A stretch of DNA of 64,000 bases from Zingiber officinale (lineage: Eukaryota > Streptophyta > Magnoliopsida > Zingiberales > Zingiberaceae): contig NC_056000.1 of NCBI RefSeq assembly GCF_018446385.1, positions 49,198,722-49,262,721 of the forward strand. The letters run 5' to 3'. Position numbers and translations under genes: made by a program. The notes below the pieces were generated by a model that saw nothing but the letters and a program-made list of their open reading frames with translations, was not told where the DNA came from and ran no database searches. This document shows, in pieces, positions 150 to 58,092 of the stretch; position 1 is the first letter of the stretch; each line of letters begins with the position of its first letter.

Positions 150-170
150 ATTTGACGCCGTCTGTGGGAA
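150..170 (+). other. primer-binding site of the Tat element
   Basis: Directly after the LTR end comes TTTGACGCCGTCTGTGGGAA, the typical Tat-clade primer-binding site, apparently with one substitution in the opening TGG. The tRNA species was not determined. Confidence 0.7.
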
Positions 171-194
171 CGCTCCTGTATCCGATCGGAAACA

Positions 195-1334
195 ATGGAC
201 GAGGCTGGACGACAACACGCGGTGACACTTTCAACTGAGGAACTCGACGCTCTGATTGAGATAAGGGCCGCCAAGCTTGTGGAGCAAAAACAGAAGGCAG
301 CATCCGAGCGGTCGGAGCAGCAAGCAACTTCAGCGTCTGGCGGCCGAGCGGAAGCACCACCTGCCACCGTCGCCTTTCATCGGGCTCTGTTCCGCACCCC
401 TGAAGCAGTGGCAGCCCACCGGGATAGGGGATCTTCTTCGGATGAAATGTCTAGGCGAGATGACAGGAAGGGGAAAGCCCCCCGAGCGGACTCATCGCCC
501 GAGCGGATCAATCGCCAATTTTCAGAGGCTATCCTACGAGACCCTCTGCCAAAGCACTACGCGCCTCCGACGATCGGCGAGTACAATGGGACAACCGACC
601 CGGATGATCATCTGGGTAAGTTCGATAACACAGCTACTCTCCATCAATACACAGATGGAGTAAAGTGCCGAGTTTTTCTTACCACCCTCTCGGGCTCGGC
701 TCAACGGTGGTTCCGGAGGCTGCCGGATGGATCCATCACGAGCTTCAAAGATTTCCGAACGGCCTTCCTCTACCATTTTGCGAGCAGTCGACGCTACCAG
801 AAAACGAGCGTGAGCCTGTTCGCCATCAAGCAAGAAGCCCGTGAATCGCTTCGAGCTTACATCCAGCGGTTCAACCAAGTGGCGATGGGCATTCCAACGA
901 CCACCTCAGAAACCATGATGAATGCCTTCACACAAGGCCTGGTGGATGGGGATTTCTTTCGATCGCTCATCCGAAAGCCGCCCCGAGACTATGATCACAT
1001 GTTACACCGGGCGAACGAATACATCAACGTGGAAGAGGCACAAGCGGCTAGGAAAAAAGAAACTCCAACCGAGCGGAAGCAACACGTCACTCATCAGCCG
1101 CCCAGAGGACCAAGGGCCGAAGCAATCCGATCCCCCCATGCCAGGTCCCACGTGCAAGAGGTAGCCGCCGCCCGGCCCAAGCCAAAAAAGAAATGGACCC
1201 CGATGTTCTGCTCCTTCCACCGGACGGATACGCACAACACAAGGGATTGTCGAAGTCTTCCCTTCGTGTCTCATCCCGTACCCCGGAATGCCGGACGACG
1301 GTCTCCCTCAGTCGACAGGCGACAGAGAATTTAA
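195..1334 (+). CDS. gag polyprotein of Tat-type Ty3 element
   Basis: A 379-residue capsid/nucleocapsid protein that would package element RNA in cytoplasmic particles. After a polar, charged N-terminus, residues about 110-275 match the plant retrotransposon gag domain (motifs such as LSGSAQRWFRRLP, REAILRDPLP-like start, INVEEAQAARKKE end). A degenerate Cys-His knuckle (CSFHRTDTHNTRDC) lies near the C-terminus. The ATG at 195 is 45 bases after the LTR and is the first good start. The frame is the same as that of pol and is closed by a single TAA at 1332-1334. The linker after it is open and typical of gag-protease junctions. The stop may be the natural gag/pol boundary or a later mutation; the sequence does not decide. 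Confidence 0.9.
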   Translation: MDEAGRQHAVTLSTEELDALIEIRAAKLVEQKQKAASERSEQQATSASGGRAEAPPATVAFHRALFRTPEAVAAHRDRGSSSDEMSRRDDRKGKAPRADSSPERINRQFSEAILRDPLPKHYAPPTIGEYNGTTDPDDHLGKFDNTATLHQYTDGVKCRVFLTTLSGSAQRWFRRLPDGSITSFKDFRTAFLYHFASSRRYQKTSVSLFAIKQEARESLRAYIQRFNQVAMGIPTTTSETMMNAFTQGLVDGDFFRSLIRKPPRDYDHMLHRANEYINVEEAQAARKKETPTERKQHVTHQPPRGPRAEAIRSPHARSHVQEVAAARPKPKKKWTPMFCSFHRTDTHNTRDCRSLPFVSHPVPRNAGRRSPSVDRRQRI

Positions 1335-4300
1335 GAAGCCGATCGGACGCGAGCTGATAGGCGACAGCAACAAACTCCCGATCGGCACCGTTCCTCAAGG
1401 CAGGAGAATCGCCGAGCGTCCAGAGAACGGTCTCGACCGTCCGCTCGGGAAGAGGAAAATAAAAGCAATACCTCCCGAGGCGAAATCAACGTTATTGCTG
1501 GCGGGCCGACCGGAGGAGACTCCAACAGAGCAAGAAAGGCGAGCGTCCAGCAGCTTCAAATCCATGCCGTTGGCTGCAGCCAAGAACGGATGAACGGACC
1601 GGAAATCAGTTTCGGGCCAGGGGACTTGGAAGGAGTTGAAGTACCCCACGACGATGCGCTGCTCATCAAAGCGGTAATAGCCAATTACACAATTCACCGT
1701 GTATTTGTTGACACAGGGAGCTCAGTCAACATCTTATTCAAGAAGGCGTTCGATCAGCTGCAAATTGATCGAGCCGAGCTGTTACCCATGACAACTCCGC
1801 TCTACGGGTTTACGGGTAACGAAGTGCAGCCGGTCGGACAGATCCGGCTGGCTACCTCGTTGGGAGAAGAGCCGCTCAGGAGGACAAGGACAACAAACTT
1901 TGTGGTGGTCGACTCTCCCTCGTCCTACAACGTCATTCTGGGACGACCGGCGCTCAGCGAATTCCGAGCGGTCGTCTCAACCTTCCATCAGAAGATCAAG
2001 TTCCCCGTGGAGGACAAAGTGGGAGAAGTACGAGGAGATCAGTTAGTAGCTCGGCGATGCTACATCGAGATGGTCCGTGCAGAAGCCAATTCCGCTCGGA
2101 AGGCGCCCCGGATCGAGGTAAACGTCATCACCGAAAAGCCACCCTCTTTAATTTATGAAGAAAAAGAGGAAGTGCAAATTCACCCATCCCGATCGGAGGC
2201 CACAACCTTTATTGCGTCCGATCTGGAGGAGAAACAGAAAGAAGAGCTGATCCAATGCCTCCGAAGAAATCATGATGTCTTCGTCTGGTCGACACATGAG
2301 CTGCCCGGAATTTCGCCGAGTATAGCGCAGCACGAGTTACATGTCCGACCGGACGCTCGGCCGGTAAAGCAGAGAAAAAGAGATTTCAGTGCCGAGCAGA
2401 ACGTCATCATTCGAGCGGAGGTGGAGAAGCTTCTGGAAGCCGGCCATATACGCGAGGTTCAGTTCCCGAGCTGGCTGGCGAACGTAGTATTAGTCTCCAA
2501 ACCGGGCAACAAATGGAGAGTATGCATAGATTTTCAGGATCTCAACAAAGCTTGCCCGAAAGATTTTTATCCTCTGCCCCGGATAGACCAGCTGGTAGAC
2601 TCTATGACCGGCTGCGAATTAATCTGTATGCTTGACGCCTACCAGGGCTATCACCAAGTGCCGCTCGCCCGTGAAGATCAAGAAAAGGTCAGCTTCGTGA
2701 CGGCCGACGGCACTTATTGCTATAATGTGATGCCGTTCGAATTGAAGAATGCGGGAGCCACCTATCAGCGCTTAATGAATAAAGTATTCAGAGAGCAGAT
2801 CGGGCGGAACCTAGAAGTTTATGTGGACGACATTCTCATCAAATCCGTCCGAGCGGCAGATCTCTTCAAAGACTTGGAGGAAACCTTCCGAACGCCGCGC
2901 AAATATGGAGTCAAGCTAAATCCCCTAAGTGCCTGTTCGGAGCGCTTCCTGGGGTACATAGTGACCGAGCGGGGAATCGAAGCAAATCCCAGCAAGGTGA
3001 AAGCCCTACAAGACATGCCGCCCCCAAGAAATACAAGGGAAGTGCAGCGTTTGACCGGTCGGATAACCGCTCTATCCAGATTCATCTCCAAAACCGCCGA
3101 CCGGAGCCTTCCTTTTTTCAAGATCTTACGCAAAGCTACAAAATTTTACTGGGACGAAGAATGCGACCGGGCGTTCGAAGATTTGAAGGCATATCTAAAT
3201 TCGCTCCCGGTATTAGCCAAGCCGACTATTGGTGAGCCACTTTGTATTTATCTATCCTCGACCGAGCAGGCAATCGGCTCAGCATTGGTGAGAGCGAGCG
3301 GAGAGGAGCCTGTGTATTTCCTTAGTCACATTTTAAAAGATGTTGAATCTCGCTACACTGGGCTCGAAAAGTTAGCCTTCGCTCTGGTCCTCGCCGCTCG
3401 GCGCCTTCGTCCATATTTCCTGGCGCATACCATTATTGTCAAAACCAATAGCCCGCTCGGACGTGTTCTACTAAATCCAGAGGAATCCGGACGGCTCATC
3501 AAATGGACGACAGAGCTAAGTGAATTTGACATTCAATACCAGCCCCGCTCGGCGATCAAGGCGCAATCCTTGGCCGATTTTGTGACTGAGGTGCAAAGGC
3601 CGGAGCCCGAAGCTATGTGGAGAATATATGTGGATGGGTCGTCCACTCGGCTCGGAAGCGGGATTGGAATATTGTTACTCTCCCCTCAAGAAGAGAAGAT
3701 GCACCTATCCGTCCGGCTGGATTATAAAGCTACCAACAACGAAGCAGAGTATGAGACCCTCATAGCCGGCTTGCAGGCAGCTCGGATTCGCAGTTGGCCG
3801 CTCAGCAGCTTTCTGGTACCTTCGAAATCAATAGTGCTCGGCTCAAGCTCTACGCTGAAGCCTTTAAGAAGCTGAAAGCCGATTTTAGAGAAGTTATTGT
3901 CCAGAAGATACCCAGAGCAGAAAATCAAGCAGCCGATGAGTTAGCCAAGCTCGCGAGCTCAATAACGCCGGTCGCCATTCAGCAATCAATTGAAAAAGTA
4001 CTGTTGGTGGCGCACGTCAACCGGATGGAATGTCTCACATTTCCAAGCGACTGGCGGACACCCATCATAGAGTTCCTCCGCTCGGGAGCCACACCGTCCG
4101 ACCGGAACGAAACCCAGCTGCTAAGGAGGAGAGCCGGTCGGTTCACACTCATCGGCGATCAGCTTTATAAAAAGGCTTTCTCACGCCCGTTGTTGAAATG
4201 TGTGAGCTCGGAGGACTCGGCTTACATCCTCCAAGAAGTACATCAAGGATCGTGCGGAGGACATCCGGGCGAACGAGCACTAGCTAAGAAGATCCTGCTA

Positions 4301-5277
4301 GCTGGATACTTCTGGCCTACTTTACAAGCAGATGCCGCTCGGACAGTGTCAACGTGCCTTTCATGCCAAAAGTACCATTACTTCAACCACCGACCGGCAG
4401 AAGAAATGAAGGCATCCACAGTTTCATGTCCGTTCGATCAATGGGGAATGGATATTGTTGGTCCATTCCCGATGGCGACCGGGCAGCGGAAATTTTTGCT
4501 AGTAGCGGTTGATTATTTTTTCAAGTGGGTGGAGGCCGAGCCGCTAGCCAAGATCACCGAACAGATGGTCAAAAAATTTATCTGGCAACACATCATCTGT
4601 CGGTTCGGCATCCCTCACCGATTGGTCTCAGATAATGGGCGGCAATTCACAGGGAAGATGCTAGAGGATTGGTGCAAAAGCTACGGCATCGAGCAACACT
4701 TCACGTCCGTGGCTTATCCCCAAAGCAACGGTCAAGCCGAAGTGGCCAATCGGGAAATTCTTCGTATTCTGCACGCTCGGCTCGACCATTGGGGAGGAAG
4801 TTGGCCGGATGAAGTGTCGGGCGTCTTATGGGCCATCCGAACGACTCCGAAGGAAGCGACGGGCGTCACACCGTTCCATTTGGTCTATGGCGGCGAGGCG
4901 GTCATTCCGGTTGAAGTCGGTGTTGAGTCCGTCCGGAGGATGAGCTATGATGATGACAACGCCGAACGGAGGAATATGGAGCTGGATTTGGTTGACGAGG
5001 AGCGAGCCAAGGCGTCTGTTCAGCTGATGGCATACCGGCAGCGGATGAAGCAAAACTACAACCGCCGCGTAATCCCCAGGTCATTCCAAGTCGGTGATCT
5101 CATCTGGAAGAAAGTCAAGCCGGTCGGCGATGTCGGTAAACTGGAGGCACCGTGGGCGGGCCCCTTCAAGGTTATTGAAAAGCTCCGCTCGGGCGCATAT
5201 TTTTGGAGGATGAAGACGGGCGGCAGCTAGATCGACCGTGGAGTGCAAATCATCTCCAGCCTTATCGAGCCGGATGA
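1335..5277 (+). pseudogene. pol of Tat-type Ty3 element (protease, RT, RNase H, aRNH, integrase), disrupted
   Basis: Continues in the gag frame after the TAA. In order: retropepsin with DTGSS (1710-1724); reverse transcriptase with the YVDD active site (2820-2831) and a typical VCIDFQDLNKACPKDFYPLP block; the first RNase H (about 3240-3600); a second, archaeal-type RNase H starting YVDGSSTR (about 3629); an integrase with HHCC zinc finger (about 4230-4375) and DDE residues in GMDIVGP, SDNGRQF and GQAEVANRE (about 4447, 4629, 4740). Two lesions are seen. A small deletion with frame change near 3785 removes part of the second RNase H between GLQAA and DSQL. A one-base frame change near 5199-5206 sends the integrase tail into an early stop at 5228-5230; the family-typical tail would run to about 5277. 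Enzymatically dead as a single polyprotein. Confidence 0.9.
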
Positions 5278-10566: not shown

Positions 10567-12191
10567 ATGATATCAGAGTGAGTTTTGCTCAGCACTAGGA
10601 GAAATCCCTCAGGTGATAACATCGCTATAGAGGAAGTGTAGTCGCGCTAGGAAAAAACAACTGTGTTGCGTTTTCTCCATTGGAGGGACTGATGCAAGCA
10701 TTGGCGAGGTGGCTGGTGACTGGCATCCATGGTCGATGAGCACTCACTACTGCATTGGGCAATCGGCCGGCCACCGTATTCACGGCGAAAAAACACATGA
10801 AAGTTTAATCGATTAAACTTATGAAGCACAGTAAATTAAGAAAAAGTTTGATTTAATTTAATCGATTGAATGAAAATTTTAATCGATTAAATCTGTTTAA
10901 CATATTTAAATAGAAAAGTTTAATCGATTAAATTGTTTAATTGATTAAATGGAAAATTTGATAGATAAATAAAAGATGAGTTGTATGAACCTGTCTCATT
11001 GTGTACCGATCTATTTGTCAAATCGACCAAGCAAATTTGATTTAAACAGAATGATTTTGAACCTGTCTGATTTAATCTTTCATTGGTTTAACTAGACCAA
11101 TATGATCCAATTAAACTTGGTATGGTTTAAACCAATGGATTGGTTTAACCAAACTATTTTAGTCCAAACTAAAACCCGTCTGATTGGTTTGATCAATAGG
11201 TCTAAGTTTGAATTAAATGAGATTAGATTAAACAATAACAACTGGATATATCAATTAAACTGGTTCTAATAAGGATAATAGACTAAGCTAATGCTCAAAA
11301 TCCGGCTTCCTAATCGATTGGTCTAGTGTGTCAGTCAACTAGGGTTCCTCAAATGAAGAAAATTTGATTTTTTTTTTTTATTTATTTCCTTATCGATCTT
11401 GTGTATTTTCTCTATGCATATGTGTAAATTGAATTGAACCGATTTTATTACTGGTTTATCGGTTTGGTACTGATATTAATATTTTCAATTCAGATGTCAC
11501 AAATGATATACATGATGACTCGTCGCGATGTGCGAAGGAATGAGCTATGGGAGGAGATTCTGGAGATCAAATATGACTTAGTTTGCAGAGTCAAAAAACA
11601 TATTGGGTGACTCAACTGATTATTCTGGAATTCGAGCAGGAAGAGTTTCCAATACTAAATAATTGCAAGATATGAGCAGTGATTTGATCATTGTCGGAGT
11701 ATTCCAAGATGGCAGCACACCATATATGGGGGGTCTCTAAAGGGCTTACCTCATATGCAGAGTTGTGTGTGGAGTTACTTCATCATGTGGAGCAAAAGGA
11801 TCCTGAAGAGTTTGAGGAGGATCCAGAAGAGGATCCAAATATGAACCAAATGAAAAATCATGAAGCTGACTTACCTGAGATTGTCCCAACCAAATCCAGG
11901 ATAAAAAGGATAGTGTGTGACCAGTACTGCACTAGTGTTTATCCTAGTGGGAGTGATGTTAACTTATCTAGCTTATTTGAGTTTTACCGTTGTTACTATC
12001 GATATGTACGAATAATATTAGCTTATTTAGTTTATAAAAATAATATAAAAGAAACTGTTATTATGTACAAACCGTACTATATTTTATATAAAAAAGAATG
12101 TTATGTGTTAAAAATCTTATAAAAATGATTTGTTCATTTCATGATTGGTTCACTTAATAATTAATCTATTTGATGAGATATGTGTAATATA
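10567..12191. other. copia leader and unclassified inserted DNA with ORF remnants
   Basis: Primer-binding site at 10567-10580, then leader. From 10807 to 10945 the palindrome TTTAATCGATTAAA or close variants recurs about six times. From 11070 to 11210 GGTTTAA/TTAAACC motifs recur. Two short open stretches follow: 11491-11610 (starting MSQMIYMMTRRDVRRNELWE, stop TGA) and 11691-12122 (143 codons; an acidic stretch EDPEEDPN, then AT-rich low complexity). I do not recognise either; they could be remnants of an older element. They are too short and isolated to call as genes. Confidence 0.5.
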
Positions 12192-12407
12192 TGTTGGTGC
12201 AATATCCCTCAGGTCAAGGTTGACCTGGTTGACCAAGCTTGAGTCTTGGTTTGAGTTTCGATGTTTGATAATGCAGTTGCTCATTTGGGGAGATTGTTTG
12301 GTGCAATTCCCCTCTGGTCAGGTCTGATCAGGTTGGTTGAAGATGAGTCAAGTAGGTCAAGGTTGACCGGATACTTGATTGGGAAGTCCTAACTGGGATG
12401 TTAGGCA

Positions 12408-12960
12408 GTAAGGAAATCCTGGTGAGTGAAGTCAGGTGAAAGACCTAGTGAGTGAAGCTAGATAGTTTGAAAGTCCTGGTGAGTGAAGCCAGGCAGAATT
12501 GAAAGTCCTGGTGAGTGAAGCCAGGCAAAGTGAAAGTCCTAGTGAGTGAAGCTAGGCAGTGAGAAAATCCTAGTGAGTGAAGCTAGGTGAAAGTCCTGGT
12601 GAGTGAAGCCAGGCAGAAGAAAATCCTGGTGAGTGAAGCCAGGTGAAAGTCCTAGTGAGTGAAGCTAGGCAGTAAGAAAATCCTAGTGAGTGAAGCTAGG
12701 TGAAAGTCCTGGTGAGTGAAGCCAGGCAGAAAAAAAATCCTGGTGAGTGAAGTCAGGTGAAAGTCCTGGTGAGTAAAGCCAGGCAGAAGAAAATCCTGGT
12801 GAGTGAAGCCAGGTGAAAGTCCTGGTGAGTGAAGCCAGGTAGAAGGAAGTCCTGGTAAGTGAAGCCAGGTGAAAGTCCTAGTGAGTGAAGCCAGGCAGAA
12901 GAGAAGTCCTAGTGAGTGAAGCTAGGCAGAATGGAAGTCCTGGTGAGTGAAGCCAGGCAC
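12408..12960 (+). repeat. LTR tandem array of GTGAGTGAAG units
   Basis: About 20 imperfect copies of a 22-37-bp unit built on TCCTGGTGAGTGAAGCCAGG, alternating with the variant TCCTAGTGAGTGAAGCTAGG. In each unit the flanking CCTGG/CCAGG or CCTAG/CTAGG pair is itself inverted, so each unit can fold into a small hairpin. The other LTR repeats the array at 18540-19095 with some copies changed. Confidence 0.9.
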
Positions 12961-13266
12961 GGGGAAAATCCAGATGGATCAAGGCTGATCGGGCATCTGG
13001 TGTTGGAAAGTCCAAGTAGGTCAAAGGGATTGACCGGATACTTGGCACGAGGAAGAAAAGTCCAAGTAGGTCAAGGGAGTGACCGGATACTTGGCATGAT
13101 GAGGAAAAGTCTAACTGGGTCAAAGGGATTGACCGGACACTTGGTGAGGGAATCCTAGTAGGTCAAGGGTGACCGGATGTTAGGCATGATGTTCCAACAG
13201 GTCAAGGATTGACCGGATGTTGGTTTGAGGGCTTTGGGACTTGGTTTTGGGCAAAAACCAGTATTT

Positions 13267-13600
13267 GGATCGATCAGCTGATCAATTGGATGCTTCCCAA
13301 TCGATCAGCCGATCGATCGGGTGAGTACCTGCGACAAAGCTCCTCCCAATCAATCAGCCGATCGATTGGGAAGAAATGTCGCGAGAAAAGAATGCCTCTG
13401 GATCGATCAGGTGATCGATCCAGAGACCCCGATCAATCGGTGGATCGATCGGGGTGGCGCGTTTTGTCGCGATAAGCCCTGGATCGATTAGCTGATCGAT
13501 CCAGGCGAATTTCTAGAGCACAGAGGCGCTCTGAATCGATCCACCGATCGATCCAAAGCCTCCCCGATCGATTGAGAGCATTCCAATCGATTGGGATCCG
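13267..13600. repeat. series of GATCGAT-based inverted repeats in the 5' LTR
   Basis: Seven or eight successive short inverted repeats, each built on GATCGAT arms with a 2-6-base centre. Examples are CAATCGATCAGCCGATCGAT, TGGATCGATCAGGTGATCGA and CTGGATCGATTAGCTGATCG. Arms differ between units (AATCGAT, GGATCGAT, CCCGATC), but within each unit the two arms match each other. The same series occurs at 19399-19732 in the other LTR, and a related one at 17327-17505 in the interior. Confidence 0.9.
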
Positions 13601-14098
13601 ACCGTTGGCGTCGATAAAGGCCGCAGGCGTTCATTTCCTTCGACATCGCTTCTACGATTCATCTCCGATCTTCACTAGCGACTCCACAGCTCTCTCTCAA
13701 ATTCAGATCGCCAGTTCTTGAAGATTCTTGGAAGTTCTTCCAAGTCAAGAGTCGGATTAAAAGTAAGAAGAGAAGTTAGGATTACAGTTTATTGTAAGCT
13801 TTTGCTTGTATTTCATTTTCTTTCCATTCTTCTTGTATTGAGAGTTTGTAAAGGCTTCTCCGCCTTCGGTAGTTACCGTAGAGGAGTGTGTTTCATAGTG
13901 GAGGGTGCGTGAGTGTGTGGATCCTTGGATTAGTCACCTCTTGTGAGGTGGATACCAAGTAAATCCTTAGTGTTAGCGTTGAGTGTTGTTTTCTTGTATA
14001 TTTCCGCTGCATCTTTGAAGAAACAAACAACGTCAAGCATACGAGCACGCGATGAGCTATTCACCCCCCCCCCCTCTAGATACTTCGGTCCCAACAAG

Positions 14099-14110
14099 TG
14101 GTATCAGAGC
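14099..14110 (+). other. primer-binding site (initiator-Met tRNA type)
   Basis: TGGTATCAGAGC, two bases after the LTR end, is the standard copia-type primer-binding site. Confidence 0.9.
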
Positions 14111-14228
14111 AAGACCGCTCTTCACCGGAATCATCGCCGGAAGGGGCAAACATAACAAGAGGAGCTAGAGGGTGAAGAAGTTGGAGCAAATTACCAAAGT
14201 CAAAGAATTCAAGAAGCTCAACTTCAAG

Positions 14229-16031
14229 ATGCAATTCCAAGATGGACTTGGATTTAACACAAGGGTAGCTCCACATTACACATCTACAAGCTTCGATCTT
14301 TGGAAATCAAGGATCGAAAACTTCTTAATGGTGGAGATAGAGCAATGGTTTGCTCTTATGGAAGGCTTCGAAGCTCCAACGAATTCAAAGGGAAAAGTTC
14401 TCAAGATGAGCAAATGGAGCCCGGAGCACGTCCAAAGGTGCGAAGCAAATGACAAGATAACCAAATTATTGGTTAATTTATTGCCTAGCACAATTCTATG
14501 CAAAATTGGAGAGTTCAAGGATGCCAAGGAGCTATAGAGCAAGTTGGCATCAATTCATGAGATCCCCTCCACTGCACCAATCCAAGAAGAATCCAAAGAG
14601 GGTGACTCATTGGAGCAAGACCAAGAGGAGGATTCCGAAGTTGAGAGATGCTCAACTTCCGAAGAAGAGGAAGTCCAAGAAGCTTCATCCTTAAAGGAGT
14701 GCAATCAAAAGAGCAAGGAAGGAGTATATTCCTTGTTTCATGTACAAGAGGATGAAGAAGAAGGTGAAGTCTCCACCTCTAGGATTGAGGGGGAGCAATC
14801 TTCACTGACATCGGATCAAGAGCGAGAAGAATCCTCCACATCCGGGTCAAGAGAAGAAGAGGATGAAGAAACTTCCACCTCCACAAGTCAAGCAAAATCA
14901 AATGGAGGAGTATCATCTTCGGAACAAGAGGAAGCCTCTACCTTCGGATCCAAAGGAGACAGTGTCATCCCTACACAAAAAGGTATAAACATTTTAATTA
15001 ATAATAAAAATCATATTATATGCTTTGAATGTAGGGAAAAAGGGCGTTACAAAAGTAAATGCCCTAAAGTGGCCAAGAAGAAGGGTCAAGTGACACAAAA
15101 GGGCAAGGAGAAGCCCAAGGAGACCATCCCCGGAACAAAGAAGAGCAAGGAGCACATTGTGTGCTTTTCTTGCAACCAAAAGAGACATTACCGAAGTCAA
15201 TGCCCTAAGGGCAAGAAAGTGGTCAAGGCTCATGGAGGAAGCTCAAGTCAAGGGGGAGCCTCCAAGGTAAAAAGAAAGGTAACTTTCATTGAGCCTACCC
15301 CTTTAAATTATGGTAAAAAGCATGATAGTTCTAACTTATATCATTTTAATGCTATTTACCATGAAAATAGGAAGCATGATAGCGTTAAGGAAAAACATAT
15401 AGCTTTTCATGCTAAAACTACTACACCTAAGGCTAGGAATGTAGGTAAAAGTCTAGGCAAGAACTCTAAGGATTTTAGCTACAAGCCTAGAAACAAAAAT
15501 ACTCATGAATTTAATGGAAAACCAAAAACTAAGGACTTAGTGATGGAGAATCAAGTCTTGGGGTCAAGACTTGACAAACTAGAAAAGACCCTAAAAAGGA
15601 TGGAAAATATCCTTAAAGGGCAAAATGAGCAAAATCTAGGTTTAGGGCAACAAGGGTCATCCAATGGCCATAGAGGTTTGGGATACAAACCTAAAATCAA
15701 AAAGAATGTACCTACTTATCATAGAGTTCCATATAGTTATGGAACCAACCCTAAGTCTAGAGGGCAAGCCAAAAATACTAGGGAGGTCATCCCTAAGAGT
15801 ATTTTTGTAATAAATGTGACTAAGGCTTCTAAGAAGTCTAAGAAAGTCACACACAAGGTCACAAGGGAAGTAATCCCTAGGATTGACCTAGAAAATGTGA
15901 CCAAGGCTTCTAAAAAGCCAAACAAGGTCACTAGAAAGGTATCTAGGGAAGTTATCCCTAGTGAATACCTAGAGCATCCAAGGAGCACCAATAGGTTTTG
16001 GGTTCCTAGGAGCATCTTCTCTACCCCATAG
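14229..16031 (+). CDS. gag protein of the gag-only element, one internal stop
   Basis: Frame from the ATG at 14229 (open upstream to 14172) to TAG/TAG at 16029-16031, interrupted by a single in-frame TAG at 14535-14537. The N-terminal part resembles copia UBN2-type gag (FDLWKSRIENFL, then KLLVNLLPSTI). The middle is very acidic and Ser/Glu-rich (about 14580-14960). Two CCHC knuckles follow: CFECREKGRYKSKC, in which the His is replaced, and CFSCNQKRHYRSQC, which is intact. The C-terminal third is Lys/Asn-rich and holds three related blocks around REVIP and NVTKASKKSKKVT (15780-15960). It would bind RNA and form particles using another element's enzymes. The single stop suggests recent inactivation or readthrough. 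Confidence 0.75.
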
Positions 16032-18321
16032 ATAGGTTAGAGAGTGTCAACTCTAAGAAGAAGGGTAGTTAACCCAACTTTGAAGAAATTGACACTCAAG
16101 GAGCATTTTCAAGGTTATTATTAACCTTTGAAAATGAAATGGATTTATCATTCACTCTTTGGAAGAGTAAAATGTGCCAAATTTGAGAAGTATTGATTTT
16201 ATTTTAAAATGACACAATTTGGGAAAATCTAAGAAATACCAAGTTGGGATTTTGGTAGTTTCTTAGTGTTACTCTTGTGAAAGAACGAAATATGCCAACA
16301 TTTTAGGAATAAGATTAATTTCAATTGGCTTAAGTTAATCAAGATAACTAGAAATGCCAATTTAGGATTTGGCATTTTCTTGGAGCACTTTAGGCAATCT
16401 AGGTTTAATTTTTAATTTAGCTAAGCTTTAAGGACACTTAGATAGGTAATCTAGATATTTTATTCATGCTAAATCTTGCCATGATTGTTTGCCCATGATA
16501 TGCCATGACATCATACTTATTTATTTGTATCTTGCATTCATGACTTACTATGAAAATACAAAAATACCATGTCATGCATTCATACATCATGTAGTTATAG
16601 GAATCTTTCTTTTGAAAGCTATTTCTTTTTTATGTATGTCATAACATATTATGCATTATTTTTAATTCCTTAAAATCAAGGACAAGTGACATTTATCAAC
16701 TTGTACCAACAAGTGGTACAAGTGTATCAACAAGTGACATCCTAGGTGGATGTTCAATATTCACGAAAATGTCTAGATAGATATGCATGATCCCTAGATT
16801 AGGGTAAAACCAACTTTTACATCTCACAAAGACCTAAAAAGATGACTTGTATGTGTTTTGTGCACATTAGAGACAAGTGAGATGTTAGGATGATGAACAA
16901 AACTCAACATGCTGATTCAGTGCATTCTTTTGAGTTTTAAATTCATCAAAATACATAGTTATGTGTTCCCATCATTGGGAAAGCTAGTGTACAAGTCATG
17001 TGCATTAAGCCCAAGGAACATGGTGGGATATTGGTTTTGAAAATGATTTTAAAATGATTTTGGAAAATCATGGTGAAGGCTATCTTTTAATAGTAATCAC
17101 CATTGAATAGTTAGACACAAACTTGAAGAAAACACTAAAGTTTTTGTAAGTTTTCAAGTTTGTGTCAATCTTTGAAAATATGATGTATTTTCTTAGAAAA
17201 CTATTTTTCCTTGAAAATATATATCCTAAATAATGTCTACACAAAGTTTCACGATTTTTAGAATTTTGTAGAATTTTTTAGGGGTTTCTGAAGTTGACTG
17301 AAATGAAATTTCAGCAATTATCAGACCTCAATCGATCACCCGATCAATTGAAGGGTCTCAATCGATCGGGCGATCGATTGAGAACAGGCTTCTCGCGAAC
17401 AGAAGCCGTCTGGATCGATCCAGCCCTCCTGAATCGATCAGTGGATCGATTCAGCATGGTCCGATCGATTGGGACCCAACTCCAATCGATCGAAGTTGCT
17501 GATTGTGGCTGGTAAAGCTTGATTTCAGCATTTTTGAACCATGGTTAGTCTAGGCAACCATTCCAAACCCTTAAAAGTATATTTGTATACATAAATAAGG
17601 TGTTTTCATGTTGAAAACAAGGATGGATTGGTTAAGGGAGACTAAGTAGAAGTTTAGGTTGAGGTTTGCTTCAAATATTGAATATTTGAACCTCAAAACT
17701 TCTAAATTTGGGTTTCCTAAAGGTTTAGGGATTCCAAGTCATTGTTCGTGAAATGACAGAAGTTATCACCATGTCTTTAGGAGGAGGGACTCTTTAAAGA
17801 CATGAAAACGATTTTTTCATGAACCTTGGAAGGTGGTTAACCTTCTTTTCAGACCATGCTCAAGGTTGAGCGTTTGAACTTTAATGGGGGGTGGATATCC
17901 TCATTGTTCAAGTGGTTTAAGTTAAAAATGCTCAAGGATGAGCATTTAACTACATTAATAGGAGAATGTAGGGTTAAGGATAATGAAGGGTATGAGACTT
18001 TCATTATCGTGTTGATCACAATGAGTGAAGTTGTGAACAACGATAAGCAACTCTTCAGGGGGAGAGTCTCAAAGGGGAAAACTTTCAACAAGTGAATTTG
18101 TCGATGTGTGCCCAAAGATAGGGCATTTGTTGATGTGTGTCAATAGGGGGAGAATGAAGGGTTTAAGTTAGGACTTCATTACCTAGAGGGAGTTTGCGCT
18201 CTTAGGAGGAGAATGAAGGGTTTAACTTATGTTTTCATTACCTTGTGGCATGAAGGAGGTTGAGGCTATGGGATTAGCCTAACTTAAATGTGGTATTGTC
18301 AAACATCAAAAAGTGGGAGAT
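16032..18321 (+). other. noncoding interior of the gag-only element, including hairpins and polypurine tract
   Basis: AT-rich with no long frame and no pol motifs. Segments recur (ATGCCAATTTAGGATTTGGC-like phrases at 16290-16380; AGGGGGAGAATGAAGGGTTTAA at about 18145 and 18205). GATCGAT hairpins lie at 17327-17505. The polypurine-like AAAAAGTGGGAGAT ends at 18321, directly before the 3' LTR. Confidence 0.75.
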
Positions 18322-20194
18322 TGTTGGTGCAATATCCCTCAGGTCAAAGTTGACCTGGTTGACCAAGATTTGAGTCTTGGTTTGGGTTTCGATGTTTGAC
18401 AATGAGTTGCTCATTTGGGGAGATTGTTTGGTGCAATTCCCCTCTGATCAGGGTTTGATCAGGTTGGTTGAAGATGAGTCAAGTAGGTCAAGGTTGACCG
18501 GATACTTGATTGGGAAGTCCTAACTGGGATGTTAGGCAGTAAGGAAATCCTGGTGAGTGAAGTCAGGTGAAAGACCTAGTGAGTGAAGCTAGGCAGTTTG
18601 AAAGTCCTGGTGAGTGAAGACAGGCAAAATTGAAAGTCCTGGTGAGTGAAGCCAGGCAGAGTGAAAGTCCTAGTGAGTGAAACTAGGCAGTGAGAAAATC
18701 CTAGTGAGTGAAGCTAGGTGAAAGTCTTGGTGATTGAAGCCAGGCAGAAGAAAATCATGGTGAGTGAAGCCAGGTGAAAGTCCTAGTGAGTGAAGCTAGG
18801 TAGTGAGAAAATCCTAGTGAGTGAAGCTAGGTGAAAGTCCTGGTGAGTGAAGCCAGGCAGAAAAAATCCTGGTGAGTGAAGCCAGGTGAAAGTCCTGGTG
18901 AGTGAAGCCAAACAGAAGAAAATCCTGGTGAGTGAAGCCAGGCAGAAGGAAGTCCTGGTGAGTGAAGCCAGGCAGAAGGAAGTCCTGGTGAGTGAAGCCA
19001 GATGAAAGTCCTAGTGAGTGAAGCCATGCATAAGAGAAGTCCTAGTGAATGAAGCTAGGCAGAATGGAAGTCCTGGTGAGTGAAGCCAAGCACGGGAAAA
19101 TCCAGATGGATCAAGGTTGATCGGACATCTGGTGTTGGAAAGTCCAAGTAGGTCAAAGGGATTGACCGGATACTTGGCACGAGGAAGAAAAGTCCAAGTA
19201 GGTCAAGGGAGTGACCGGATACTTGGCATGATGAGAAAAAGTCCAACTGGGTCAAAGTGATTGACCGGACACTTGGTGAGGGAGTCCTAGTAGGTCAAGG
19301 GTGACCGGATGCTAGGCATGATGTTCCAACAGGTCAAGGATTGACCGGATGTTGGTTTGGGGGCTTTGGGACTTGGTTTTGGGCAAAAACCAGCATCTGG
19401 ATCGATCAGCTGATCGATTGGATGCTTCGCAATCGATCAGCCGATCGATCGGGTGAGTCCCTGCGACAGAGCTCCTCTCAATCGATCAGCCGATCGATTG
19501 GGAAGAAATGTCGCGAGAACAGAATGCCTCTGGATCGATCAGGTGATCAATCCAGAGACCCCGATCGATCGGTGGATCGATCGGGGTGGCACGTTTTGTC
19601 GCGATAAGCCCTGGATCGATTAGCTGATCGATCCAGGCGAATTTCTAGAGCACAGAGGCGCTCTGGATCAATCCACCAATCGATCCAAAGCCTCCCCGAT
19701 CGATTGAGAGCATTCCAATCGATTGGGATCCGACCGTTGGCGTCGATAAAGGCCGCAGGCGTTCATTTCCTTCGGCATCGCTTCTACGATTCATCTCCGA
19801 TCTTCACCAGCGACTCCACAGCTCTCTCTCAAGTTCAGATCGCCAGTTCTTGAAGATTCTTGGAGGTTCTTCCAAGTCAAGAGGCGGATCAAAAGCAAGA
19901 AGAGAAGTTAGGATTACAGTTTATTGTAAGCTTTTGCTTGTATTTCATTTCCTTTCCTTTCTTCTTGTATTGAGAGTTTGTAAAGGCTTCTCCGCCTTCG
20001 GTAGTTACCGTAGAGGAGTGTGTTTCATAGTGGAGGGTGCGTGAGTGTATGGATCCTTGGATTAGTCACCTCTTGTGAGGTGGATACCAAGTAAATCCTT
20101 AGTGTTAGCGTTGAGTGTTGTTTTCTTGTATATTTCCGCTGCATCTTTGAAGAAACAAACAACGCCAAGCATACGAGCACGCGACGAGCTATTC

Positions 20195-20234
<40 letters not shown>
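18322..20234 (+). repeat. 3' LTR of the gag-only element, 3' end missing
   Basis: Nearly identical to 12192-14073 along its length, including the tandem array and hairpin series. It runs into a 39-base C homopolymer (20196-20234), where the 5' LTR has about 11 C followed by the last 23 bases of the LTR. After the C-run the sequence is unrelated (TTGATCAATATTGG), so the LTR end and target duplication are absent. Confidence 0.88.
20196..20234 (+). repeat. 39-base poly-C run
   Basis: Uninterrupted C run at the broken end of the 3' LTR. It could be real slippage with a deletion, or an assembly artefact at a homopolymer. Confidence 0.95.
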
Positions 20235-20342
20235 TTGATCAATATTGGTTAGTTTAGATTATATGAATGATAAGCGAAAACACAATTGCTACTTGATTTT
20301 GTAAACTAACTCAAATTAATATTAAATCAATCATAAATTATA
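20235..20342. other. short AT-rich junction sequence
   Basis: Lies between the poly-C run and the Helitron-like element. No gene or repeat recognised. Confidence 0.4.
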
Positions 20343-20965
20343 TTAGTCATCACGCACACGCGTTGCTTATGTAATATAATACTTGAATACACATAAATTA
20401 TATAAAATGAATATTTACTGTCAAGTAATTAAACAACATTATTCAATGCTAATATGATTTATTCTATAAAAATCTTAATCTGAAAATAAAGTAGAAATTA
20501 GGTTGTTAATTATACCTCAAGTTATGTAGTGAGAATGTCTTATATCACTCAAAAAACTAATGAAATAACTGATGAAATACTGAGATGGATAGATGTGTGT
20601 GTGATTTTTCTCAAGAATCGATGAGATACAGATGGATTGATGCAGCTATATTGATATGCAGAAGAGCTAAAACATATGGATTAATGTGTTGTGATATAAA
20701 AAGGATAAAGAGAAAATTGTTGCAAAAATTGGAGAGAGAGGGGGGAGGAGAGAATGATGAAAAACCGATGAGCATTGAGATGATGAAAAGAAGCGATGCA
20801 GATAGTAGAAATTAGGTTATGCATATATGATTTGAGAATGATAAGAAGTTGAAATTACTAATAAGCTTTGAAATTATTTTCGGTGTGAAAAGAAAAAATG
20901 ACATTAACATAACTTAATTTTAGGCTTCACCAAATCAATTGAGAGTTGGTTATTAAAGGGTTGAA
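20343..20965 (-). mobile_element. Helitron-like non-autonomous element, copy C
   Basis: Extensive similarity to 34863-35440 and, at its right end, to 34740-34842 (shared TAGGCTTCACCAAA block). On the minus strand the 3' end reads ...GTGATGACTAA followed by T, as in Helitron CTRR ends inserted at AT. No coding capacity is seen; the reading frame near 20585-20815 is not conserved in the other copies. The right (5') boundary is approximate. Confidence 0.55.
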
Positions 20966-55809: not shown

Positions 55810-58077
55810 TTACTGGTAACCAGCCACTTCGCCAGGCATCGGAGCCAACTCATTGTTTCCAAACTTTTCCTCATCATAAAATGAAGCGCGCACCACTCTT
55901 CCGCCAAAGAAACGCCCATCAAGGTCAATCAATGACTTTGTCGCGCCCTCTGACCTCTCAAATTGCACAAAGATCCTAACTGCTTCTTCTACTGGGAAGT
56001 TTGGTTCGGTTATCTCAAATATCAACACTCGTGTAACAGTGCCATATTTTGTGCACTCTGATGCGACCTCATCTTCAAGCTCGTCGTCTACTTCTCCTGG
56101 TCCAACCTGAGAAAAATGGTCTCTTTAGCAACCATTTCAATAAACTATTTTTAATCGCCTACGATCCACAAGTTAAGCAAGTGGGAAAAGTTTCACCCGT
56201 TCAGCAGCCATTTCAAATAACCATTATTAATTGTCTATAATCCACAAGTCGAGCATAGCAAGAAACATTTCACTGGAAATATTGACCTAAAGAGATTGCC
56301 AAGTGCTAAAAAATCATAGTGAGAAACAATATTCCAAGACACAGAAGTAACAGTAGTTCAAAAGTGATCTAAAGCAAATATTGAAAAAGTAACATTTTGA
56401 GCTCTCAACCCAAAATTGCTTCAATAAAACAAAAGGTAAAATTTTACTCAAAAAGAATCCAAACAAACCTACAAAATTTTGGAGGGTTGATCCCTAGTGC
56501 CTTAGTGTGTGATATTAATTCTGACCGAAATGGAAGATTTTTTTTCCTCAGCACTACCAACTACTCTTTTACTTGTTACATTGAAAAAAAATACTTTAAT
56601 GCAAAAGGAGCAACAAGACTGCTGTTACAAAAGCCTAATGAGCATTTAGTAGAAAACTATTCTGAAACTTTTAGTGTCCAAATAATTAATTTGACAAGAT
56701 AGAACTGTGTTCAAAAGGAATGCCAAAAACATCGCAAATACACAATTACATGAAATGAAGTCAGCCTTGTGTAAAATGCAAAGTGGATTTGATGAAGTGC
56801 AACCAATTTGAATGATCTTTACCAATAAAATTAAGACAAGGCATAGAATCGCTCCCCAGTCTTCTAAATATTCTTAAATGTGATGTGACCAGAACCATCC
56901 TTCTGGAGAATTGAGTTTTCTAGGAGTTAGACATGCAACGGTCCCTTGCTGATTGAGAACAGAACTATCTCTTAAACTAAGTACCATAGGCAAATAAAAA
57001 CAAGGTGCCTTGATAAAGTATACCGCTGTTAAATTTAACGGCATCTAAAACTAATCAAATTACTGAAGACCCAAATTCACGTGCGGCGCCTAAAGGTTTC
57101 TATGCAAGAAAGTAGACAAATATACTCAACAGAATAATCTTGTATCAGACAGTTGTATGAACAAAATGAACTTCTGTTATTTGAAGCATGCATTTTTTGG
57201 ACTGTCTTACCATGTTTCGTAGTAGTACGACACGAGTGGGTGGGCTGTTCATATTGACACTTTTAACCTTCTTCTCGGATTTAGGCTCACTAGCATTAAC
57301 AATAACCCCAGCTCGCCTATCAGTTTTTTTTGCCATCAAGGGAGTAGTAATACCCTGTTCCTGTTTGCCAAGACCCTGGCCTTCTTTCCAACCCATTTTT
57401 GCCATCATCCTCTGTGCAGCAGTCATTTGTCCACCAGCACCAATTCCCAATCCGGCAGTAGTTGACTTTCCAATGCTAAATCCATCTCCATTTGGAGGCG
57501 GAGAAGGTGATTTTGGAGGAACTCCTCCACTCATGGAAGCACGTCTTTTCCAGGCTTCTTCACCAGATACACTCAGTGATGAGGACCTTGATCGATGATC
57601 ATTATCTTCTCTCTCTGCAGCTTCCTGTTCCCTTCGTTCCCTCTCCTTCTCCCTTTCCTCCTCTTCCCGGCGTCTCCTATCTAGTTCCCGCTTCATTTCT
57701 GCCTCTGCAACCCTTTTCTTCTTCTCTCTCCTGTACTCCTCATAATCATTTGGCCTAGCAGGATCATATTCCTCGATGACTGTTGATGTCACGCCAACAA
57801 GAGCTGGCTGAAAAGCTGGGCCTTTGGTATCATTTTCTAGCAAAGATGGTGGAGTGGAAGCACTCAGTGGCCTTGGTTGTGGTGTGATTGAACTTTTAGC
57901 TTTGATCTGTAACTGTTGATTCCTCAAAATAGATTGAGGTGGTGAGAATACAGTTGACTGCTTTCGCAACGTGGGCGGAGCCATCTTTCCACTGCTTGAC
58001 CAAACAGATGAACTGTTGCTTCTCTCCTCATCAGCTGCTGCAGGAGGAGGAAGGTCTCCATAAAGTCCACCCAACAT
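55810..58077 (-). CDS. DRT111: SPF45/DRT111-type splicing factor (G-patch and U2AF-homology RRM)
   Basis: Coding exons 58077-57211 and 56106-55810 (minus strand) join CATG|GTAAGA...CTCAG|GTTGG in phase to 387 residues, the length of Arabidopsis DRT111 (also called SFPS/RSN2). Nuclear factor acting in 3' splice-site choice, with roles in light and abscisic-acid responses and an older DNA-damage tolerance annotation. Domains: N-terminal MLGGLYGDLPPP; Arg/Glu-rich coiled region at 118-160; Ser-rich patch at 162-195; G-patch at about 220-250 (MAKMGWKEGQGLGKQEQGIT); RRM from 281 to the end with U2AF-homology R-x-F (RFF, 354-356). An intron in the 5' UTR runs 59367-58093 (CAG|GTATGT...TTATAG); the upstream noncoding exon ends at 59368. 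No lesion seen. Confidence 0.95.
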
Positions 58078-58092
58078 TTCTCTTTCAACTCC

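What the first reader, a model, noticed from the sequence alone, without database searches (positions are those of the whole stretch)
12192..20234. Gag-only retrotransposon with 1.9-kb LTRs (TR-GAG-like)
The interior between two very similar LTRs carries a PBS, a gag frame with two zinc knuckles and a PPT, but I found no pol motif in any frame over 2.3 kb after gag. This suggests a non-autonomous family that supplies its own gag and borrows enzymes. Only one TAG interrupts gag, so selection on gag may have been recent.
Basis: partly seen in the sequence, partly recalled or inferred. Interest (0 to 1): 0.7.

Follow-up and report, generated by a model that had tools for sequence, protein, structure and literature searches.

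The report
Gag-only Sirevirus-type retrotransposon family in ginger
A many-copy family of ginger jumping elements encodes none of its own enzymes, yet has kept one protein-coding gene under selection over many rounds of copying; that gene makes a particle (Gag) protein that lacks half of the usual shell-building part, so the element probably rides in the particles of related, complete elements.

Summary
The element at 12192-20234 has 1.9-kb LTRs, an iMet-type PBS, gag, a 2.3-kb non-coding linker and a PPT. In 26 of 26 junctions examined in other copies, linker follows the gag stop directly, leaving no room for pol. What is taken to be the other haplotype carries the empty site.

Gag is under purifying selection. 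Median pairwise omega is 0.29 (210 pairs; 1.05 and 1.23 in shifted frames). Indels are multiples of three in 43 of 51 cases, against 56 of 363 in the linker. About 90% of synonymous divergence predates insertion.

Its Gag matches a complete ginger Sirevirus Gag only up to the middle of the capsid domain (E=3e-14; Pfam 15-77 of 172 against 27-165); an acidic, Ser-rich stretch, zinc knuckles and a putative coiled coil follow.

Gag-only elements are known (TR-GAG; barley RLC_Giselle with Sirevirus-type RLC_Inga), so this is a variant of a known kind. No pol-bearing partner with a closely similar LTR was found; the mechanism is inferred.

The parts
12192..14096 (+). 5' LTR, 1905 bp, TGTTGG...CCAACA
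12418..12960 (+). U3 array of short stem-loop units (CCTGG-TGAGTGAAG-CCAGG type, stems covarying with CCTAG...CTAGG), repeated at about 18549-19091
12971..13245 (+). U3 longer stem-loop units with inner GGTCAA...TTGACC
13269..13560 (+). seven ATCGATC...GATCGAT palindromes (up to 2 mismatches), like Sirevirus LTR repeated motifs (RM); seven also at 19401-19690
14064..14074 (+). C-run of the LTR end, like the Sirevirus polyC integrase signal, 22 bp from the LTR end
   Evidence: PMC2829016
14095..14110 (+). 5' LTR/PBS junction CA/AGTGG/TATCAGAGC (initiator Met tRNA type)
14229..16031 (+). gag, interrupted by TAG at 14535-14537 in this copy; half capsid domain, acidic stretch, two CCHC positions (first degenerate here), putative coiled coil
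16032..18321 (+). non-coding linker, pol and env absent
17331..17450 (+). three RM-like palindromes inside the linker
18057..18152 (+). two upstream PPT octamers AGGGGGAG (18057, 18145)
18312..18321 (+). terminal PPT (AGTGGGAG here; AGGGGGAG in 14 of 18 readable copies) plus AT before the LTR
18322..20234 (+). 3' LTR, truncated in C39; last ~22 bp and target-site duplication missing

Best explanation
A non-autonomous, gag-only (TR-GAG-type) family descended from a Sirevirus (Ty1/copia). Shown: one structure (LTR, PBS, gag, linker with RM-like palindromes and several PPT octamers, PPT, LTR) shared by many copies, no pol in those examined, gag kept under purifying selection while copies multiplied, insertion at a site that is empty in the other haplotype, and a Gag that retains only the first half of the copia capsid domain plus zinc knuckles and a putative coiled coil. 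Inferred: pol-bearing Sireviruses in the same nucleus supply protease, reverse transcriptase, integrase and most or all of the capsid, because PBS, PPT/attachment site and C-rich LTR end are of the type their enzymes use. The family's own Gag acts in cis, binding the RNA that encodes it through the zinc knuckles and joining helper particles through its retained capsid half. Cis action is needed because a protein shared freely would give its own copy no advantage to select on.
For: Gag-linker junction without pol in 26 of 26. Omega 0.29 median of 210 pairs, shifted frames 1.05 and 1.23; pooled pN/pS 0.32, codon bootstrap 0.27-0.38, and 0.21 in codons 1-129. Indels 43 of 51 in frame (counted per copy, shared ones repeatedly) against 56 of 363 in the linker. 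5 of 20 gag copies with neither stop nor frameshift. LTR-LTR K median 0.022 in the 16 of 20 copies that could be dated, against gag dS 0.207, so about 90% of divergence and omega about 0.22 lie before insertion. Sirevirus junctions. Gag homology to a complete ginger Sirevirus Gag: BLASTP 3e-14 over 104 aa, then ends (hhalign 9e-11). Pfam coverage 15-77 of 172 in 5 of 5 uninterrupted members against 27-165 in the Sirevirus. Sirevirus-like pol in open frames of 1000 aa or more at 8 of 150 scored places (one with a TAG in the matched stretch; 150 scored of 48,042 first-look candidates). Empty site.
Against: No pol-bearing element with a closely similar LTR was found; the best LTR similarity to two pol-bearing relatives is 67% over 216 bp, plus 92% over 26 bp at the PBS in one of them. 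The 20 main copies were chosen for similarity to this gag, so counts do not describe the whole family. Zinc knuckles are both canonical in only 12 of 20 copies, and 15 of 20 gag frames are broken, as expected of decaying insertions. The Gag domain scores are below Pfam's cut-off. Cis action, co-assembly and RNA binding are untested. Low synonymous divergence in parts of gag could mean that part of gag is kept as RNA.
Confidence: 0.72

Rival explanations
1. One deleted copy of an ordinary autonomous element.
For: This copy is damaged: a TAG, a lost knuckle histidine, a truncated 3' LTR.
Against: The same gag-linker junction without pol in 26 of 26 junctions.
Confidence: 0.02
2. Gag is kept only as a cis-acting RNA (packaging or structure), not as a protein.
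For: Fourfold-site diversity is low in 5 of 6 150-bp bins from 15129 on (0.000-0.064, the sixth 0.176) against 0.195-0.234 in the first two bins (few sites); gag 15229-15640 folds with z -5.8.
Against: Non-synonymous changes are suppressed relative to synonymous ones only in the gag frame; indels keep the frame; the N-terminal capsid-like part has the lowest pN/pS (0.17 in codons 1-80) where synonymous diversity is highest (0.37), so its conservation is of the protein.
Confidence: 0.08
3. The selection signal is inherited from a pol-bearing ancestor: pol was lost recently, and gag has drifted since.
For: A gag-pol ancestor is very likely from homology.
Against: All sampled copies share the same junction although their gag dS is about 0.2, so the gag-only state predates their divergence unless recombination spread it; after subtracting post-insertion divergence omega is about 0.22.
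Confidence: 0.1
4. The truncated Gag acts against other elements (interferes with helper particles) or for the host, rather than helping its own RNA.
For: It lacks half the capsid domain, as an interfering capsid fragment might; the retained half has the lowest pN/pS.
Against: Selection on many dispersed copies is hard to explain without a benefit to the copy itself (argument, not a test).
Confidence: 0.12

Closest known systems
[quoted passage not shown] Chaparro 2015, paper not held, known here through citing papers)
   Same: LTRs, PBS, PPT, a gag frame and no pol; Arabidopsis AT5TE33540 shows that such elements can transpose (PMC8704663 passages)
   Different: Here the Gag lacks half of the capsid domain and the non-coding parts are Sirevirus-type; capsid domains of published TR-GAGs were not compared
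Barley RLC_Giselle with autonomous partner RLC_Inga (PMC5738225 passages; Inga is in the Sirevirus set of PMC2829016)
   Same: Copia family with potentially intact gag and no RT or integrase, thought to depend on a Sirevirus-type partner; conservation highest at the PBS
   Different: Other plant; whether Giselle Gag has a whole capsid domain could not be seen; here dN/dS and indels were measured and no partner was found
Sirevirus (SIRE/Maximus lineage, Pseudoviridae)
   Same: PBS junction, PPT octamer with AT/TG, several PPTs, PPT-flanking inverted repeat, palindromic LTR motifs, polyC LTR end, Gag with CCHC and putative coiled coil
   Different: No pol, no env; capsid domain half missing; two zinc-knuckle positions rather than one
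LARD (large retrotransposon derivatives)
   Same: Long LTRs, large non-coding interior, non-autonomous
   Different: LARDs lack coding capacity (recalled); here gag is kept under selection

Membership tests
TR-GAG | two LTRs with PBS and PPT | tested here: met
TR-GAG | a gag frame | tested here: met
   interrupted here; 5 of 20 other copies have neither stop nor frameshift
TR-GAG | no pol, in many copies | tested here: met
   26 of 26 junctions; no pol similarity in the element
TR-GAG | target-site duplication | tested here: inconclusive
   lost with the 3' end of this copy; the empty site is present on C16; 5' flanks of the other copies were not fetched
TR-GAG | autonomous partner with shared LTR ends | tested here: inconclusive
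   two Sirevirus-like elements with pol frames have a similar PBS and LTR end, neither with a closely similar LTR
Sirevirus | 5' LTR/PBS junction CA/A(T/G)TGG/TATCAGAGC | tested here: met
   exact in the window and in 17 of 20 copies, one base off in 3
Sirevirus | terminal PPT AGGGGGAG followed by AT/TG | tested here: met
   14 of 18 copies with the junction exact, 4 one base off; the window is one base off too
Sirevirus | several PPT octamers in the linker near the 3' LTR | tested here: met
   two upstream octamers in the window; 2-4 in each of the 18 copies with the junction
Sirevirus | inverted repeat flanking the PPT/3' LTR junction | tested here: met
   window only: 16 of 17 bp, right arm 65 bp inside the LTR rather than about 28
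Sirevirus | palindromic repeated motifs in the LTR | tested here: met
   7 per LTR, 3 in the linker; ATCGAT core like Tnd-1, not CGG-CCG
Sirevirus | polyC-rich signal about 21 bp from the LTR end | tested here: met
   14064-14074
Sirevirus | Gag with CCHC and downstream coiled coil, homologous to Sirevirus Gag | tested here: met
   N-terminal half 3e-14. Weaker: C-terminal LEKTL...GLGYK region E 6e-4 but probability 28%; two other comparisons with pieces of the L028 gag gave nothing (probability under 3%). Coiled coil judged from sequence, not predicted by a program
Sirevirus | RT in the Sirevirus clade | not testable with these tools
   no RT in the element
Sirevirus | complete copia capsid domain | tested here: not met
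   Pfam PF14223 positions 15-77 of 172 only, below the curated cut-off; so 'Sirevirus-derived', not a full Sirevirus
Sirevirus | CpG island and TATA box in the LTR | not tested
   -
LARD | no coding capacity | tested here: not met
   gag under selection

The most novel reading that the evidence does not exclude
The family encodes not a particle-forming Gag but a new kind of satellite factor: a Gag cut down to the first half of its capsid domain, with an acidic linker, two zinc knuckles and a putative coiled coil, that cannot build a shell and instead attaches its own RNA to particles of helper Sireviruses. It would be a retrotransposon counterpart of a satellite virus carrying its own packaging adaptor, kept by selection for an estimated 7-14 million years.
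Probability: 0.35. Interest if true: 0.75.

Novelty: new variant of a known kind. Interest (0 to 1): 0.5.

Why it matters
Whether gag-only elements keep gag because they need the protein, or merely because they have not yet lost it, is unclear from the papers seen; this family gives a measured answer (frame-specific constraint through many insertions). A conserved Gag with half a capsid domain makes it testable which part of a Gag a parasite of particles needs, and whether it works in cis.

Tried and rejected
Rfam on 12000-20400: no family at gathering score. Solved structures with the five-row gag profile: only two entries of the zinc-knuckle protein AIR2, E 0.24 and 0.75. Linker as a conserved structured RNA: the fold is far better than shuffles (z -4.8 and -18.2, 20 shuffles each), but in the one block tested (17001-17560) only 9 of 151 predicted pairs show a double change and the covariation term is -0.05, so no RNA function is claimed. 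RVT_2 search for a partner: 120,716 candidates, 150 scored; the ten loci cut out showed no LTR or interior of this family beyond short matches, the strongest 32 bases. Partner hopes that failed: pol-like matches beside L009, L017, L023 and L027, and gag beside L028, lie outside the element (nested insertion targets or neighbours). The 9.8-kb LTR pair on C9, examined over 2.2 kb of its interior, shows the gag end and then linker, not pol. The U3 hairpin array at first looked new; the Sirevirus paper already describes palindromic repeated motifs in LTRs. Text searches that found no match: TR-GAG with Zingiberaceae; gag-only, retrotransposon, purifying selection and capsid; this covers only the held library.
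Full report
Observation. The element at 12192-20234 is real. Its LTRs differ at 80 of 1901 aligned positions (K2P 0.044), which is 1.7 or 3.4 million years at 1.3e-8 (recalled rate) or 6.5e-9 (the rate used in ginger paper PMC8342499, passages). The host is Zingiber officinale, judged from contig lengths (PMC8342452, passages). The best match of the left flank elsewhere lies on C16 (93%), taken to be the other haplotype; there the two flanks lie next to each other with one base between them, so the insertion is absent. In the window copy the 3' LTR ends inside a run of 39 C, and the last ~22 bp and the target duplication are gone; an assembly error at the homopolymer cannot be excluded.

Is it one deleted copy? 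No. DNA searches of the whole genome with the gag part and with the linker gave 40 scored places each, out of 13,603 and 16,624 first-look candidates; these are not copy numbers. The 20 best gag places, the window's own left out, were fetched with 10 kb each. All 20 have linker directly after the gag stop, and 18 of 20 continue to a 3' LTR, some with nested insertions; the linker is broken off early in 2. Five loci chosen from the linker list carry 526-582 bp of gag ending where the linker match begins, and one chosen from an LTR pair carries the last 28 bp of gag and then linker. That is 26 of 26 junctions. Ten Copia pol proteins and the Gypsy pol of the window find nothing in the element (best E 1.7). 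Where pol was seen in fetched loci it lay outside the element.

Selection on gag. Projected onto the window's codons, 20 other copies have 0-3 in-frame stops each, and 5 of 20 have neither stop nor frameshift; 43 of 51 indels are multiples of three, against 56 of 363 in the linker of 17 copies; indels are counted per copy, so shared ones count repeatedly. Median pairwise dN is 0.062, dS 0.207 and omega 0.29 (210 pairs, range 0.20-0.85); the same count in shifted frames gives 1.23 and 1.05. Pooled pN/pS is 0.32 (codon bootstrap 0.27-0.38): 0.21 in codons 1-129, about 0.59 in the acidic stretch, 0.32 in the rest. The low ratio at the N-terminus goes with a high pS (0.37 in codons 1-80); in absolute terms pN there (0.064) is not the lowest, which is 0.02-0.04 in codons 321-480 and 561-600, where pS is low too. 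Pairs share branches, so the bootstrap understates the error. Sixteen of 20 copies could be dated from about 440 bp of LTR (four lacked a usable second LTR end): K median 0.022, range 0.007-0.044. Subtracting this leaves omega about 0.22 before insertion, about 90% of the dS, and a depth of 7-14 million years for the two rates. This is an estimate from medians. Because the junction is shared, the gag-only state is at least that old, unless recombination spread the junction.

What lineage. The non-coding parts match the Sirevirus description of PMC2829016 (abstract and parts 1-3 of 7 of the main text read): PBS junction (exact in 17 of 20 copies), terminal PPT octamer with AT/TG (exact in 14 of 18), 2-4 upstream octamers, an inverted repeat around the PPT junction, palindromic repeats in the LTR and the C-rich LTR end. 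In that paper linker repeats occur in env-bearing elements; three such palindromes in this linker hint at an env-bearing ancestor (inference). Other Sirevirus-like elements of the same genome show the same kinds of ends: L047 (whole gag), L048 (gag cut by the end of the locus) and L039 (LTR and gag start only; pol not seen). A Sirevirus-like pol piece finds open frames of 1000 aa or more at 8 of 150 scored places, one of them with a TAG in the matched stretch, out of 48,042 first-look candidates, so enzymes could be supplied.

What is odd about the Gag. An uninterrupted family Gag aligns with the L047 Sirevirus Gag over 104 residues (28% identical, E 3e-14) and the match stops at the HE after AKELWxKL; the next matches are a zinc knuckle (2e-6) and a short C-terminal piece (0.05). 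The profile comparison agrees (9e-11); comparisons with three broken pieces of the L028 gag were weak. Pfam Retrotran_gag_2 is covered at 27-165 of 172 in L047 (55 bits) but only at 15-77 in five family members, at 18-22 bits, under the cut-off of 27; the window's own piece gave no match. The following ~155 residues are 26-27% D+E, 23-25% S+T and poor in hydrophobics (two members). Both zinc knuckles are canonical in 12 of 20 copies (first 16, second 13). So half of the capsid domain is missing in a protein whose retained half has the lowest pN/pS. That the missing half corresponds to the C-terminal capsid domain is recalled, not tested.

Mechanism. Shown: copies spread without encoding enzymes, and the Gag frame matters. 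Inferred: helper Sireviruses provide the enzymes and the particle; the family's Gag works in cis as an adaptor between its RNA and the particle. I give the gag-only Sirevirus identity about 0.9 and the adaptor mechanism about 0.35; the rest is shared among ordinary co-assembling Gag, a partial RNA role of gag and interference.

Known or new. Gag-only elements are an established class (PMC6696364, PMC10025401, PMC8704663, passages seen); barley RLC_Giselle with RLC_Inga is the nearest precedent (PMC5738225, passages). What I did not find in print (held library only, most listed papers seen as listings) is a gag-only family in ginger or its relatives, or one with a conserved half-capsid Gag. This is therefore a new variant of a known kind.

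Noticed in passing
12418-12960 and about 18549-19091; 20 loci: U3 holds a long array of stem-loop units whose stems covary (CCTAG/CTAGG 57 and CCTGG/CCAGG 55 of 185 loop matches, chance matches included; at the fourth pair A-T 80, G-C 69, G-A 11, G-T 8, A-C 3); RNA fold z -5.2, 20 shuffles.
   Followed up: partly
L039 and L009 (LTRs of other Sirevirus-like elements): Other LTRs in the same genome carry arrays of the same design with different stem sequences (seen by eye), which suggests that stem pairing rather than sequence is kept, or that repeats turn over by hairpin-templated copying.
   Followed up: no
15129-16031: Fourfold-degenerate sites in much of the 3' half of gag vary little (0.00-0.06 in 5 of 6 bins, 0.18 in the other) against 0.20-0.23 at the 5' end; few sites (15229-15628 against the 5' end, 15 sites each, p 0.03; against the middle, p 0.24): a possible cis-acting RNA inside gag.
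   Followed up: partly
14788 and 15251: Two exact PPT octamers AGGGGGAG lie inside gag and recur in 18 and 19 of 20 copies; the Sirevirus paper calls the octamer rare outside the linker.
   Followed up: no
20196-20234: A run of 39 C replaces the last ~22 bp of the 3' LTR and the target duplication: slippage deletion or assembly error.
   Followed up: partly
LTRs of the window element: 15 W-box-like motifs (TTGAC[CT], both strands) per LTR against about 3 in shuffles; many sit in the stem-loops; possible stress-responsive promoter.
   Followed up: no
17001-18000: Linker RNA folds with z -18.2 against 20 shuffles; palindromes and inverted repeats contribute; little covariation in the block tested.
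   Followed up: partly
14535-14537 and L013: The TAG at codon 103 recurs at the same codon in one other copy of 20: shared descent or a mutation hot spot.
   Followed up: no
156-5230: Gypsy-type gag and pol frames; a close relative of the pol lies in L023 (89-93% protein identity).
   Followed up: no
57145-58092, minus strand: Frame with a G-patch-like segment (MGWKEGQGLGKQEQG), recalled as similar to the DRT111/SPF45 splicing factor; not searched.
   Followed up: no
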